Assembly: GCA_011390365.1 (NCBI GenBank)
Contig: JAABSM010000023.1
Location: 1 to 48,243 of the forward strand
DNA length: 48,243 nt
From: Gammaproteobacteria bacterium
GTDB taxonomy: Bacteria; Pseudomonadota; Gammaproteobacteria; Chromatiales; Chromatiaceae
Direction: 5' to 3'
The notes beneath the pieces are model-generated. The model did not search any database, was not told the DNA's origin, and worked only from the letters and a program-made list of their open reading frames with translations. Shown here in pieces: positions 743 through 46,658 of the stretch; the first letter of the stretch is position 1; each line of letters opens with the position of its first letter. A program made the translations under genes and the position numbers.

Positions 743-862
743 ACTCCCGCTCCCGCCGGGAGGGGGCCGGGGGGAGGGTCTTTGGCATTGGCGGGAAGTT
801 CGAAGCATCCCGCCAACGCCAGCACCCCCTCCCTGACCCTCCCCCGGCGGGGGAGGGAACCC
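743..862. repeat. G/C-rich inverted repeat block between ybeD and lipB
   Basis: The gap 637-1161 has no credible gene. Its left part holds an imperfect inverted repeat: CCGGGGGGAGGGTC on the left pairs with GACCCTCCCCCGG on the right, and inside lies a hairpin TTGGCGGG (788-795) with CCCGCCAA (819-826). It resembles the 'CCCTCTCCCGCCGGGAGAGGG' type of intergenic repeat common in GC-rich proteobacteria. A related, decayed stretch occurs around 22760-22845. Weak ORFs across it are compositional artefacts. Confidence 0.6.
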
Positions 863-1020
863 TTCGATCGATGCTGGAAGTAAACCTCCAACCGTCACGG
901 TAGCCCCGAGCTGCTCGGTGTGGGCTTTTCTGGAAATCGCCTTAGGTCGCTCACAATTCCGTGGGGGTTGATAATTGCCATGGCTCGAATCTCCACCCCT
1001 GAAAATTAAGCGCCTCATCC

Positions 1021-1743: not shown

Positions 1744-1956
1744 CGCCATTAAGTTGACCTCGCGCCGTGTTCCCGTCCTTGATGCGCCTGACTCCGGAGC
1801 AGGCCGGAAATCGTCGGACCGGCATAGGATGTGCCGAATAAAAAGCCTTGTCGCTCGGTCGACGGCATATCCTATGCAGAACCAAAAACGGTCGGCTTAC
1901 CCGCGAAATGAGGCGCATCATCTCCGAACCGGGTCGCTATCTCCGTGGTGTAGCCT
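1744..1956 (+). repeat. MITE-like repeat, copy 1 (decayed right end)
   Basis: Same family as the intact copy at 24293-24511. It keeps a left end GCCATTAAGTTGACC, the subterminal GATGCGCC / GGCGCATC pair, and an inner inverted repeat GGCATAGGATGTGCCG against CGGCATATCCTATGC. The right terminal repeat is not recognisable and no target duplication is seen, so this is an old copy. It fills most of the gap between ybeD and the VOC-UPF0158 gene. Confidence 0.75.
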
Positions 1957-19918: not shown

Positions 19919-20959
19919 ATGGGTGAAAGGGATCCCCTCATCGACCCCAACCGAGACAACGACGAAGCGGCGCTGGACCGCGCCATCCGTCCCCGCCGCC
20001 TCGCCGACTACGTGGGCCAGCCGGTGGTGCGCGAGCAGATGGAGATCTTCATCCCCGCGGCCCGCGGCCGCGGCGAGGCCCTCGACCACGTCCTCATCTT
20101 CGGCCCCCCCGGCCTCGGCAAGACCACCCTCGCCCACATCGTCGCCAACGAGATGGAGGTCAACATGCGCCAGACCTCCGGCCCGGTGCTCGAAAAGGCC
20201 GGCGACCTGGCCGCCATCCTCACCAACCTCGAACCCCACGACGTCCTCTTCGTCGACGAGATCCACCGCCTCAGCCCGGTGGTCGAAGAGGTCCTTTACC
20301 CGGCGATGGAGGACTTCCAGCTTGACATCATGATCGGCGAAGGCCCCGCCGCCCGCTCCATCAAGATCGACCTCCCCCCCTTCACCCTGATCGGCGCCAC
20401 CACCCGCGCCGGCCTCCTCACCTCCCCCCTGCGCGACCGCTTCGGCATCGTCCAGCGGCTGGAGTTCTACTCCGTCGAAGACTTGCGCGGCATCGTTCAG
20501 CGCTCCGCCCGCATCCTCAACATCGAAACCGACACCGACGGCGCGCACGAGATCGCCCGCCGCGCCCGCGGCACCCCACGCATCGCCAACCGCCTGCTCA
20601 GAAGGGTGCGTGACTACGCCCAGATCAAGGGTGACGGCCGCATTACCCACGACATCGCCGACAAGGCCCTCACCATGCTCCAGGTCGACGCCAACGGCTT
20701 CGACCTCATGGACCGCAAACTCCTCGCCGCCGTCATCCAGAAGTTCGACGGCGGCCCCGTCGGCGTCGACAGCCTCTCCGCCGCTATTGGCGAAGAGCGG
20801 GGGACCATTGAGGATGTGCTTGAACCCTACCTGATCCAGCAGGGCTTCCTCATGCGCACCCCGCGCGGGCGGGTGGCGACCAAGACCGCCTATTTGTTGT
20901 TTGGGCTGGAGCCGAGGCAGAGCGCGGTTCAGGAGAATCTGGACCTGTTTGGGGGATAA
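19919..20959 (+). CDS. ruvB: Holliday junction helicase RuvB
   Basis: 346 residues, the RuvB length. It is the hexameric AAA+ motor that drives branch migration with RuvA. Motifs: Walker [10 protein letters not shown] (about 63), Walker [10 protein letters not shown], sensor 1 [20 protein letters not shown], and a C-terminal winged helix with [13 protein letters not shown]. The upstream gene is not ruvA, as is usual, but an AI-2E family protein; ruvA and ruvC must lie elsewhere. A 137-bp stretch of this gene (20511-20648) reappears, about 90 percent identical, at 22139-22275. The gene itself is intact. Confidence 0.97.
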
Positions 20960-22119: not shown

Positions 22120-22303
22120 GGACACCCATATACTTCCCGCATACTCAACATAGAAATCGACACCGACGGCGCGCAAGAGATCGCCCGCCGCGCCCGCAGA
22201 ACTCCCGCATCGCCAACCGCCTGCTCAGAAGGGTGCGCGAGTACGCCCAGATCAAGGGCGACGGCCGCATCACCAGAGCAATAAAGGACACCCATATATT
22301 TCC
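22120..22303. repeat. 18-bp direct repeats bracketing a ruvB fragment
   Basis: GGACACCCATATACTTCC at 22120-22137 and GGACACCCATATATTTCC at 22286-22303 differ by one base. They enclose exactly 148 bp that are mostly ruvB-derived. The arrangement suggests the fragment arrived between duplicated sites, or that a repeat-driven recombination captured it. The remainder of 21766-22497 has no gene. Confidence 0.75.
22139..22275 (+). pseudogene. Duplicated internal fragment of ruvB
   Basis: This segment matches ruvB 20511-20648 with roughly 90 percent identity over 137 bp, by base-by-base reading. It corresponds to ruvB codons about 198-243 ([20 protein letters not shown] onwards). One base is deleted, which shifts the frame, and substitutions change Arg and Thr codons, so it is non-coding debris. 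The source gene is 1.5 kb upstream in the same orientation, which makes a local duplication or capture of a close relative's ruvB equally possible. Confidence 0.8.
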
Positions 22304-23234: not shown

Positions 23235-24233
23235 GTGAAATGTGCAATTTGCAATAAAGTCAAGGGGAAGCGTATTTGTCTCTTACAGGAGAAACAAGCG
23301 ATTTGTTCTCGCTGTTGCGCGGAGGTTAGGGGAGACGCTTGCGAGGGCTGCAGCTATTACGCTCAGGCTGAAGCATACGCCATTGATAAAGCGGCGAAAG
23401 GTGATCGGAAGCACTTCACGATTGAGATCAATCCTGAGGTTGAAAATGCGGTTCATGAAATCTTGCAAGAGGTTTCGCGCGGTAGAACCAAAAAGGCCGA
23501 AGCCGATCTGCAATCCCTCCATGCAGAGTACCCAGACAACCACATGATTTATTTTGGCTTGGGGACTTGCCTCGCTGTCGACGGGCGTTTGGATGCGGCT
23601 ATAGAGTGTTTCGACCGAGCTCTGGAGATATTTCCCTATTTTGTTGACTGCTGGGTCAATAAAGGCATGGCCCATTCAAAGAAGGTTGAGTTCTTGCAGA
23701 TGATCAATGCCTACGGGCATGCGGTCGAATATGGACCAGCGGATGACGAAGGGGTAGCATACGCCCGAAAAATTCTGGAAGCAATGGACGCCCATGAGCG
23801 CGAGAACGGATCTTCGCTGGAGAGATATGTAAAAGGGCTGGAGGCGTTTGACAAGGGCTACAACCAGCTTAGAGAAGGAAAATATGATGACGCAATTGTA
23901 AACTTGCAACGTGCCGCTGACATTTCGCCGCATCTCCCGCAGCCCTACGGCAACATGGGGCTATGTTACGGCTTTTTAGGTCAAAAGAAGAACGCTATTG
24001 CGTCGTTGGAAAAGGCCCTTGAGATTGATCCGAAGTATGAGTTGGCGTTGGCAAACAAGGTAATGATCGAGAATGGAATGGACGAAGGCGTGCCCCTGAA
24101 GCAGAATAAGCTGGAATTCGTGAAATACTATGCGGAATATGGGGAAAGCGCCGGACGTTCGTATATTAGGGAGCTGATTGAAAAAGAAAAGCAATTATTA
24201 ACGAAATCGGGCAATCACCATTTTTCTGCCTGA
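23235..24233 (+). CDS. Zinc-ribbon and TPR protein
   Basis: 332 residues. The N-terminal 40 residues carry eight Cys (3, 6, 15, 24, 27, 28, 36, 39) in CxxC pairs, a zinc-ribbon form (MKCAICNKVKGKRIC, then CSRCCAEVRGDACEGC). After a linker come TPR units: about 98-135 (YFGLGTCLAVDGRLDAAIEC), 205-240 (FDKGYNQLREGKYDDAIVNL) and 240-275 (YGNMGLCYGFLGQKKNAIAS), a protein-binding scaffold. No signal peptide or membrane helix. Base composition is clearly lower in GC than the flanking genes, and codon use is unlike them, which suggests recent transfer. The start codon is GTG with a weak ribosome site. The role is unknown; proteins of this design are widespread. Confidence 0.82.
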   Translation: MKCAICNKVKGKRICLLQEKQAICSRCCAEVRGDACEGCSYYAQAEAYAIDKAAKGDRKHFTIEINPEVENAVHEILQEVSRGRTKKAEADLQSLHAEYPDNHMIYFGLGTCLAVDGRLDAAIECFDRALEIFPYFVDCWVNKGMAHSKKVEFLQMINAYGHAVEYGPADDEGVAYARKILEAMDAHERENGSSLERYVKGLEAFDKGYNQLREGKYDDAIVNLQRAADISPHLPQPYGNMGLCYGFLGQKKNAIASLEKALEIDPKYELALANKVMIENGMDEGVPLKQNKLEFVKYYAEYGESAGRSYIRELIEKEKQLLTKSGNHHFSA

Positions 24234-24292
24234 AAAAAGAAGAGGGGGAAGCGAAGGAAACCCAATGGTTCAAAACCAAAGGGTGCGGACTC

Positions 24293-24511
24293 AATGCCAT
24301 TAACTTAAGCGCCATGCCAGGTTCCCGCCCTTGATGCGCCTTACTCCGGGGCAGCCCGGAAATCGCCGGGCCGGCATAGGATGTGCCGAATAAAAAGCCT
24401 TGTCGTTCGGTCGACGGCACATCCTATGCAGAACCAAAAACGCTCGGCGCACCCACGAAATGAGGCGCATCGCTCCCGGAGAATGCCATGGTGGCTTAAG
24501 TTAATGACATT
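24293..24511 (+). mobile_element. 219-bp MITE with 12-bp target duplication
   Basis: Ends AATGCCATTAACTTAAGC (24293-24310) and GCTTAAGTTAATGACATT (24494-24511) are inverted repeats with one mismatch. Weaker pairing continues inward to GATGCGCC / GGCGCATC. Inside, GCATAGGATGTGCCG (24374-24388) and CGGCACATCCTATGC (24415-24429) pair perfectly. GGGTGCGGACTC occurs immediately outside both ends (24281-24292 and 24512-24523), a 12-bp target duplication. No ORF lies within. Related copies: 1744-1956, 13425-13562 and 32076-32291. It needs a transposase in trans, not seen in the window; 12 bp is in the range of some IS4-family elements. Confidence 0.88.
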
Positions 24512-24838
24512 GGGTGCGGACTCGTTAGGTTTCAGTGAGACATGACTTTTGAAATCAATTTAACCTGAAATGCCTTTTGCTTAGGAAAACAGCGCAGACG
24601 AGGGGTGATGTTTATGCAAGAGGGAAGACCATTCTGTGGATGAATATCCGTGATGGCTAATGCGGGTCGGTTACTGGGAAAGGTAGGATTCTTGTCTGGC
24701 TGTAAGGTTTGAGGTGGCTTGGATACCTGCGAGGCTTTCCGTTTTTCCGTACGTTCCAGAGGTAACAAAGCGAGAGCTGGCCCCATTCGCTCTTTGAGCC
24801 ATCCCTGCGATTGCTCGATTTTCAGAATACTTGCACAG

Positions 24839-24951
24839 CCACTCCCCTCCAGCTTGGGAACCCAAGTCTGGGCAGCTCTAGCTGCCTGATCGTGAACCAG
24901 CAAGCAAGAGCTTGCAAGACGCTCGCACCCAAGGGGACCTTGGGTGCGAGC
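24839..24951 (-). repeat. CTCGTTCCC palindromic repeat, copy D
   Basis: Read on the minus strand: stem GCTCGCACCCAAGG / CCTTGGGTGCGAGC (24921-24951, a perfect 14-bp stem), spacer GTCTT, stem GCAAGC / GCTTGC, then GGCAGCTAGAGCTGCC and CTTGGGTTCCCAAGCTGGAG. This follows the same order as copy C at 46546-46658. The rest of 24524-25089 shows no credible gene; a 155-residue frame on the minus strand spans this repeat and resembles nothing known. Confidence 0.7.
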
Positions 24952-25089: not shown

Positions 25090-25617
25090 TTATGGCGCGC
25101 CGGGCACCCGCAAGGTCAGCGTTCCGTCGCGCTGGGTAAGCTCCAGATGCTTGAGGAAGCTCATGCCCAGCAGGATTTCGTCTCCCTCCATGCGATCCAC
25201 TATGCTGGCGGAGATGTCTTCGATGCGGATGTCGCCGAGGCGGACGTGGTCGAGATGAGTTCTGGCGACGCGGACGTCGCCGGCTGCGGTGCGGCTGACG
25301 GCGTAGCCGAGCAGGGGGAGGTCGAGGCGGCGGGCGGCATCGCCGGGGATGGCGACGTTGGTGGCGCCGGTGTCGACCAGGAAGGTGACCGGGCGGCCGT
25401 TGATCTCGCCGTTGGCGACGTAGTGGCCGGCGCGGTTCTGGTGCAGGGTGACGCTGGCCGAGCCGTCTTCGCCAACCACGCTGATCGGGTTTTGATTGGG
25501 GTTTTCCCGATCGTCAAGAATGTCCTGAAAGAACAGGGTCATGAGGCCGATGGCCAAGACCCATGCCCCCAGGATCATCCCCTTGCCGATCTGCTTCTGT
25601 TCGTTTTCAGGGTGCAT
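25090..25617 (-). CDS. Membrane-anchored retropepsin-like aspartic protease
   Basis: 175 residues. One membrane helix (about 14-31, MILGAWVLAIGLMTLFF) anchors a periplasmic domain. FLVDTGATNVAIP (79-91) carries the catalytic DTGA of clan AA proteases, and ILLGMSFLKHLEL is the second conserved element. It fits the TIGR02281-type group of proteobacterial clan AA aspartic proteases, which act as dimers like retroviral proteases. Its substrate is unknown. The ATG overlaps the comM stop by one base (TGATG), so translation is likely coupled with the upstream gene. Confidence 0.88.
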   Translation of the reverse strand: MHPENEQKQIGKGMILGAWVLAIGLMTLFFQDILDDRENPNQNPISVVGEDGSASVTLHQNRAGHYVANGEINGRPVTFLVDTGATNVAIPGDAARRLDLPLLGYAVSRTAAGDVRVARTHLDHVRLGDIRIEDISASIVDRMEGDEILLGMSFLKHLELTQRDGTLTLRVPGAP

Positions 25618-32075: not shown

Positions 32076-32291
32076 CCTGTCATTCCGTTAGCGGCACGTC
32101 AGGTTCCCACTCTTGATGCGCCTGACTCCGGAGCAGGTCGGAAATCGTTGGGCCGGCATAGGATGCGCCGAATCAAAAGCCTTGTCGCTCGGTCGACGGC
32201 ACATCTATGCGGAACCAAAAACGGTCGGTGTACCCCGAAATGAGGCGCATCATTCCCGGAAAATGCCACGATGGCTTATCTCGATGATATT
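32076..32291 (+). repeat. MITE-like repeat, copy 3 (decayed)
   Basis: 216 bp aligned with the intact copy at 24293-24511. It keeps GTTCCC, the subterminal GATGCGCC / GGCGCATC, GGCATAGGATGCGCCGAAT, and a right end GATGGCTTATCTCGATGATATT. Both terminal repeats carry substitutions, the inner hairpin is damaged, and no target duplication is visible. The segment 32292-32363 holds a 'CCTCGGTGATCTCCGTGCC' repeat. Confidence 0.75.
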
Positions 32292-32363
32292 CAAGGCCGA
32301 AATCCGCCTCGGTGATCTCCGTGCCTTGGTGAAAGATCTGGTGAAAACCCTGGCGCGGCTGTA

Positions 32364-46545: not shown

Positions 46546-46658
46546 CTCGTTCCCAAGGCCTCCTTGGGAATGCATGTCTTGCAAGCTCTCGCTTGCCGCC
46601 TGGATATGGGGGGCAGCCAGAGCCGCCAAGACCTGGGTTCCCAAGCTGGAGCTTGGAA
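46546..46658 (+). repeat. CTCGTTCCC palindromic repeat, copy C (longest)
   Basis: TCTCGTT, stem 1 TTCCCAAGG / CCTTGGGAA (46550-46570), spacer GCATGTCTT, stem 2 GCAAGC / GCTTGC (46581-46596), then a middle part with GGCAGC and GCCGCC, and a last stem TTCCCAAGC / GCTTGGAA (46638-46658). It matches copy D on the opposite strand and copies A and B at their first two stems. It touches the next element. Confidence 0.75.

What the first reader, a model, noticed from the sequence alone, without database searches (positions are those of the whole stretch)
24281..24523. A 219-bp MITE with near-perfect ends and a 12-bp target duplication
GGGTGCGGACTC flanks both ends, the termini are 17/18 inverted repeats, and a perfect inner 15-bp inverted repeat plus subterminal GATGCGCC/GGCGCATC give a nested-palindrome design. 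An intact duplication implies recent transposition, while three other copies in the window are decayed. The transposase that moves it is not in the window.
Basis: partly seen in the sequence, partly recalled or inferred. Interest (0 to 1): 0.7.

Follow-up and report, generated by a model that had tools for sequence, protein, structure and literature searches.

The report
High-copy IS4-type MITE with REP-like arms
This is a real 221-base hitchhiking DNA element, present in about a hundred or more copies in one bacterial genome, that carries the end signals of an IS4-type jumping gene around a hairpin core resembling a different class of repeats; it is a new family of a known kind of element.

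Summary
The element is 221 bp (24292-24512): of 27 full-length copies with flanks, 26 begin with C and 26 end with G. The target duplication is therefore 10 bp (GGTGCGGACT), not 12; 20 of the 27 copies keep it (at least 8/10; 10 perfect), against 6 of 702 mismatched flank pairs. The genome holds 120 recognisable places (a lower bound). Other genomes searched gave only a 30-bp match (G131) and two REP-array matches (G002). Its ends, CAATGTCATTAACTTAAGC, are those of complete IS4-family elements in related genomes and fit the published IS4-subgroup hallmarks. The home genome carries IS4-type end pieces, two of them cut off at contig ends, with 17/19 matching ends, so a helper is probably resident though not assembled. 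Paralogous empty sites exist for another copy. The mechanism, trans-mobilisation by an IS4-subgroup transposase, is ordinary. Less ordinary is the interior: its arms exactly match arms of REP repeats in two related genera, which in one locus flank a RAYT-like gene. Precedent: QMITE2 of Coxiella contains a REP.

The parts
24292..24512 (+). complete MITE, 221 bp
   Evidence: 218.7-bit full-length match to the 28-copy model, of which it is a member; borders from 27 copies with flanks
24282..24291 (+). left 10-bp target-site duplication GGTGCGGACT
24513..24522 (+). right 10-bp target-site duplication GGTGCGGACT
24292..24310 (+). left terminal inverted repeat CAATGCCATTAACTTAAGC (18/19 to the family end CAATGTCATTAACTTAAGC), IS4-subgroup type
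24494..24512 (-). right terminal inverted repeat CAATGTCATTAACTTAAGC (19/19)
24331..24341 (+). subterminal arm TTGATGCGCCT, identical to an arm of REP repeats in related genera
24374..24389 (+). inner hairpin arm GCATAGGATGTGCCGA, identical to the other REP arm
24415..24429 (+). inner hairpin arm CGGCACATCCTATGC (complement of 24374-24388)
24462..24471 (+). subterminal arm GAGGCGCATC (partner of 24331-24341; the family consensus continues ATT, this copy does not)
1745..1929 (+). decayed copy of the family
   Evidence: 150.9 bits
13414..13563 (+). strongly decayed partial copy
   Evidence: 61 bits
32078..32291 (+). decayed near-full-length copy, older subfamily
   Evidence: 169.8 bits; alignment A2
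754..887 (+). another dispersed repeat; uninterrupted paralogue of the site into which the C90:18155 copy inserted

Best explanation
A non-autonomous miniature transposon (MITE), 221 bp, with terminal inverted repeats of the IS4 family, subgroup IS4. A DDE transposase made by an IS4-subgroup insertion sequence in the same cell recognises the CAATGTCATTAACTTAAGC ends, excises the element and inserts it at staggered cuts, giving a 10-bp target duplication in G+C-rich sites. The copies probably arose in more than one burst (an older group whose right end typically reads ATTAAGATAAGC and a younger one with ATTAACTTAAGC). Shown: ends, multicopy spread, 10-bp duplications, paralogous empty sites of another copy, IS with the same ends in relatives, IS4-type end pieces in the home genome. 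Inferred: that the resident IS4-type element is the helper, the cut-and-paste chemistry (from the family), and the bursts. The interior contains arms that equal those of REP repeats of related genera, so the element is probably a REP-derived or REP-containing core riding on IS4 ends (inferred).
For: Copies: 143 matches in the home genome at 120 distinct places, 115 if pieces within 300 bp are merged, 65 of the 120 at least 200 bp long; 150 of 2197 candidates scored, so a lower bound. End pattern (up to 3 mismatches) 47+44 matches against 2+1 for the reversed control. 10-bp duplication in 20 of 27 copies, 10 perfect; 6 of 702 mismatched pairs reach 8/10. The end with at most 1 mismatch in 18 is found in 15 of 211 genomes of the order, home genome included, against 3 control matches in the 211. 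Among them are complete IS of 1446 bp (L082; ends 18/19 on both sides) and 1425 bp (L072; ends 17/19 and 18/19), the latter with GGGTGACCGG on both sides (read). Both transposases pass the DDE_Tnp_1 and the NCBIfam NF033592 IS4 cut-offs. IS4-subgroup hallmarks (PMC2266710, passages seen): ends -AATR--------WTW----, repeats of 10-13 bp, 1400-1650 bp, YREK; met by the MITE ends, the 10-bp duplication, both IS sizes and P0002. Home genome: C97, C101 and C108 carry the end CAATGTCATTTAGTTAAGC (17/19) behind the end of an IS4-like frame. Empty sites: the joined flanks of the C90:18155 copy align across the junction to window 754-887 and two other places with one 10-mer.
Against: No complete IS4-type IS with the MITE's ends was seen in the home genome; the resident ends differ at 2 of 19 (C97, C101, C108) or 4 of 19 (C30). 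The resident transposase pieces are short and weak on their own: E 0.7 for C97 and C101, 0.06 for C108; the C30 piece passes the Pfam cut-off (23.4 against 23 bits) but, as a fragment, not the NCBIfam one. 7 of 27 copies lack a recognisable duplication. L082 has no clear 10-bp duplication, and its transposase has H for R in the YREK motif. The C90:18155 copy of the empty-site test has only 8/10 in its own duplication, and a second copy (C90:21729) abuts the same repeat, so the two may not be independent. No empty site was found for the window copy.
Confidence: 0.88

Rival explanations
1. A REP/RAYT-type repeat (REPIN-like) moved by a Y1 tyrosine transposase, whose IS4-like ends are incidental.
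For: All four internal arms of the consensus match REP arms of related genera exactly (10-16 nt); the longest match is 16 against at most 12 in 500 mononucleotide shuffles (the REP stretches had been chosen by one of the motifs). In L243 such repeats flank a Y1_Tnp gene on both sides.
Against: 10-bp target duplications and IS4-subgroup ends in most copies; as recalled, Y1 transposases leave no such duplications. The home genome has one sub-threshold, interrupted Y1_Tnp match, without the motif in its locus.
Confidence: 0.04
2. A conserved RNA or regulatory hairpin kept for a cellular function, spread by recombination.
For: Very stable fold on both strands (z -8.2 and -8.9).
Against: 1 of 58 predicted pairs shows a two-sided compensatory change in 27 copies; the only Rfam match scores 17.7 against a gathering score of 55; three of the four window copies are decayed; one copy interrupts a ShlB/FhaC-type transporter gene.
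Confidence: 0.04
3. A plain internally deleted IS4 element, the REP-like arms being a chance or convergent resemblance.
For: MITEs are thought to be IS that lost their transposase (abstract of PMC5896051 as listed); the resident IS end shares CAATGTCATT.A.TTAAGCGC with the MITE left end.
Against: In the 30-nt ends compared, similarity to the IS ends stops at about 19-21 nt. The second REP motif, which was not part of the search pattern, lies beside the first in all five stretches (four loci) examined.
Confidence: 0.25

Closest known systems
IS4 family, subgroup IS4 (PMC2266710, passages seen)
   Same: End consensus -AATR--------WTW----, 10-bp duplication within 10-13, related full-length IS of 1425-1446 bp, DDE and YREK transposase
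   Different: The window element encodes nothing and is 221 bp
QMITE2 of Coxiella burnetii (PMC5896051, abstract and passages seen)
   Same: Short MITE (150-190 bp) with 7-11 nt direct repeats, strong hairpin, contains a GTAG REP
   Different: No sequence comparison was made; here the REP-like core is tagged ATAG and the ends are assigned to a named IS subgroup
REP/RAYT repeats, GTAG superfamily (PMC3733652, abstract and passages seen)
   Same: Shares exact 10-16 nt arms with REP-like repeats found here in related genera
   Different: Has IS4 ends and 10-bp duplications; arms are spread apart in the order GATGCGCC, CATAGGATGTGCC, GGCACATCCTATG, GGCGCATC, unlike the REP pairs seen
ERIC and Correia elements (figures from review PMC10969869, passages seen)
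   Same: High-copy bacterial MITEs (Correia 204 bp, over 120 copies; ERIC up to 711 copies)
   Different: Different ends, as recalled; no sequence relation tested

Membership tests
MITE | short, non-coding, terminal inverted repeats | tested here: met
   221 bp, TIRs 18/19 and 19/19 to the family end; no ORF of 100 aa or more lies in it
MITE | multiple dispersed copies with target-site duplications | tested here: met
   120 places; 20 of 27 copies with a 10-bp duplication
MITE | ends shared with an autonomous IS | tested here: met
   two complete IS in relatives with 17-18 of 19 end bases, IS-end pieces in other relatives up to 19/19, resident IS ends 17/19; no complete IS in the home genome
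MITE of IS4 family, subgroup IS4 | end consensus -AATR--------WTW---- | tested here: met
   CAATGTCATTAACTTAAGC compared by eye with Table 1 of PMC2266710
MITE of IS4 family, subgroup IS4 | direct repeats 10-13 bp | tested here: met
   10 bp
MITE of IS4 family, subgroup IS4 | partner transposase with DDE and Y(2)R(3)E(6)K | tested here: inconclusive
   met in the relative's P0002 (YHRRWGAEESYKRQK); P0001 has H for R; the C30 piece of the home genome reads YHDRWGVEELYKVSK, but the partner of this MITE is not assembled
MITE of IS4 family, subgroup IS4 | mobilised in trans by that transposase | not testable with these tools
   needs a transposition assay
REP/RAYT (GTAG superfamily) | 20-40 nt palindrome with a terminal GTAG-type tag | tested here: not met
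   arms shared, but the element is 221 bp and the tag reads ATAG
REP/RAYT (GTAG superfamily) | RAYT gene flanked by the repeats in the same genome | tested here: not met
   home genome: one sub-threshold interrupted match without the motif; of 12 Y1_Tnp loci examined in it and relatives, 2 carry the motif

The most novel reading that the evidence does not exclude
A RAYT-class REP repeat lineage changed vehicles: REP arms that in a sister genus accompany a Y1 (RAYT) gene became enclosed by IS4-subgroup ends in this lineage and were amplified to over 100 copies by a DDE transposase, while the RAYT-type gene of this genome is interrupted.
Probability: 0.3. Interest if true: 0.55.

Novelty: new member of a known kind. 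Interest (0 to 1): 0.32.

Why it matters
It adds a high-copy MITE family with a measured 10-bp duplication to the IS4 family, and it offers a case in which a REP-like palindrome appears to be carried by a different class of transposase. That bears on how REP repeats spread and on how MITE interiors arise.

Tried and rejected
A 12-bp duplication was rejected by the 27-copy flank comparison. Rfam: one match, far below its gathering score. Plasmids: no match at E 1e-5. The named-genome scan with an exact 21-mer gave one chance coding match in a Myxococcales MAG; records of the home genome or of very near ones may be left out of that collection. The other DDE_Tnp_1 locus, C140 (L058), has no matching ends. 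An empty site for the window copy: no match across the junction in 56 genomes. RNA selection: almost no covariation.

Copies and rows left out: searches used 28 full-length copies, namely 25 of the 30 loci (L006, L023, L027, L029 and L030 lack an end or are cut by a contig end) and 3 older-type copies; L002 was dropped from the flank count for lack of flank. Copies without both ends are therefore not in the duplication count. One search used 27 sequences: L015, L020 and the insert-bearing L137 copy were left out, L132 and the window copy at 32077-32292 added. One search scored 4 candidates per genome. One search compared the consensus with five REP stretches from four loci that had been chosen because they carry the first motif, so only the second motif and the counts are independent of that choice; its control shuffled single bases, not dinucleotides. 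Against the REP reading: of 14 Y1_Tnp loci found I examined 12, and 2 carry the motif; the Y1 gene of REP-rich G002 (L237) does not, and REP-bearing G001 gave no Y1_Tnp match.

Full report
What is there. The window copy lies in a gap between a TPR-protein gene (23235-24233, +) and an aspartyl-protease gene (25090-25617, -), with a Mg_chelatase (ComM-like; that name is recalled) gene behind the latter. It starts 58 bp after the stop codon of the TPR gene.

Borders and duplication. I compared 27 full-length copies with both flanks. Mean flank identity is 80% at an offset of 10 bp and 27-39% at 8, 9, 11 and 12. Twenty of 27 copies have at least 8/10 matching bases and 10 are perfect; 6 of 702 deliberately mismatched flank pairs reach 8/10. 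The window copy has GGTGCGGACT twice. The C5 copy (L026) has the same 10-mer between different neighbours, with the element in the opposite orientation, so this target was used at least twice. Targets are G+C-rich; in the 40 duplication copies of the 20 good cases G is the commonest base at positions 2 (25) and 6 (31) and C at positions 5 and 9 (24 each).

Copy number and spread. A sequence-only model of 28 copies gives 143 matches in the home genome, with 150 of 2197 candidates scored. They fall in 120 non-overlapping places, 115 after merging pieces within 300 bp; 65 of the 120 are at least 200 bp. Of the six other genomes, five had none and one (G002) had two weak matches, which turned out to be REP arrays. 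A DNA search of 195 family genomes, the home genome included, found one other genome with a match, of 30 bp only. The window has three further copies, all decayed. Alignments A1 and A2 show a younger group ending ATTAACTTAAGC on both sides and an older one whose right end typically reads ATTAAGATAAGC.

Which transposase. The end pattern with at most one mismatch in 18 occurs in 15 of 211 genomes of the order (home genome included); the reversed control has 3 matches in all 211. Two loci hold a complete IS between such ends: L082 (1446 bp, transposase P0001) and L072 (1425 bp, P0002, flanked by GGGTGACCGG on both sides). Both transposases pass the NCBIfam IS4-family cut-off. The IS4-family review (PMC2266710, passages seen) gives for subgroup IS4 the ends -AATR--------WTW----, 10-13 bp repeats, 1400-1650 bp and YREK; these are met, except that P0001 has H for R and L082 shows no clear duplication. 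In the home genome three places (C97, C101, C108) carry the IS end CAATGTCATTTAGTTAAGC preceded by the end of a transposase-like frame; C97 and C101 are nearly identical over 160 bp, C108 is a little diverged. C97 and C101 are cut off by contig ends, as expected of a multicopy IS that short-read assembly collapses (inference). The match of these short frames to P0002 is weak (E 0.06-0.7). A fourth piece, on C30, has a clearer IS4 transposase end with 15/19 matching end bases. So the helper is probably resident but is not fully assembled. This is inference.

Empty sites. Joined flanks of the C90:18155 copy align across the junction, without the element and with one 10-mer, to window 754-887 (81% over 135), to C90 near 22145-22296 (93% over 153) and to C147 (79% over 135). 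These are paralogous empty sites. That copy's own duplication is 8/10, and the C90:21729 copy abuts the same repeat. A second, weaker case is the L135 copy, whose joined flanks align over 64 bp (81%) to L019. In all, 2 of 25 joined sites had such a match among the sequences held. For the window copy no genome of 56 matched across the junction.

The interior. The inner arm GCATAGGATGYGCCGA (at most 1 mismatch) occurs 175 times in the home genome, 98 times in G002 and 22, 15, 7 and 5 times in G001, G116, G094 and G134, and 0-3 times in each other genome of the order (control 0-2 per genome). In the stretches read from those relatives it is mostly one arm of palindromic repeats whose other arm is GAGGCGCATC or a close variant. 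In L243 (G094) two such pairs flank a Y1_Tnp gene above the Pfam cut-off. Of 12 Y1_Tnp loci examined, only L243 and L238 carry the motif, and G002's Y1 gene does not. The MITE consensus has both motifs exactly (10-16 nt), but further apart and in a different order. The first motif was the search pattern, so its match there is by construction; the second was not, and it is adjacent in all five stretches (four loci) examined. I read this as a REP-derived or REP-containing core. Convergence is not excluded. A MITE containing a REP has precedent in QMITE2 (PMC5896051, abstract and passages seen). In the listings of my paper searches I saw no title or abstract describing a REP core inside IS4 ends; the listings were ranked and truncated, so this is weak evidence of absence.

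Function. The fold is very stable on both strands, as for any long palindrome. Only 1 of 58 pairs shows compensatory change in 27 copies, which gives no support for selection on an RNA. One copy interrupts a ShlB/FhaC-type transporter gene (pieces searched apart).

Verdict. A new IS4-subgroup MITE family, high-copy and seen in no other genome searched beyond short or REP-type matches.

Noticed in passing
L137 489-842 (home genome C33, about 56888-57241): An older MITE copy carries a nested insertion of about 130 bp with ends GGCATCCTTCATA / TATGAAGGATGCC and a repeat GCATCATTC on both sides: apparently a second MITE type.
   Followed up: no
L172 619-1239 (home genome C22, about 50218-50838): A 239-bp tandem array (2.6 units) whose units include 81-88 bp of the MITE right end.
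   Followed up: partly
window 20508-20647 and 22136-22274: A partial duplicate of ruvB coding sequence (90-94% identical) about 1.6 kb further on.
   Followed up: no
window 24847-24950 and 46546-46651: Another dispersed repeat in inverted orientation; the part at about 24847-24951 recurs at several places in the home genome and in G002, and once in G001.
   Followed up: partly
L239 about 1460-2263 (home genome C124): A Y1/RAYT-type transposase frame interrupted by an insert with inverted repeats GTAACCGTTCACACCCCC / GGGGGTGTGAACGGTTAC; a similar uninterrupted frame exists in the congeneric genome (L236).
   Followed up: partly
L059 1-1132 (home genome C30, 6905-8036): An IS4-type element ends inside a frame that looks, from recall, like an N6-adenine DNA methylase gene.
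   Followed up: no
L014 and L020 flanks (home genome C102, C33): Two copies share the extended target CTAGGCGCGT(G/A)CC although the bases further out differ.
   Followed up: no
L147 1460-1800 and L149 120-370 (G002): Tandem arrays of inverted REP pairs of the CATAGGATG(C/T)GCCGAG...GAGGCGCATC type.
   Followed up: partly
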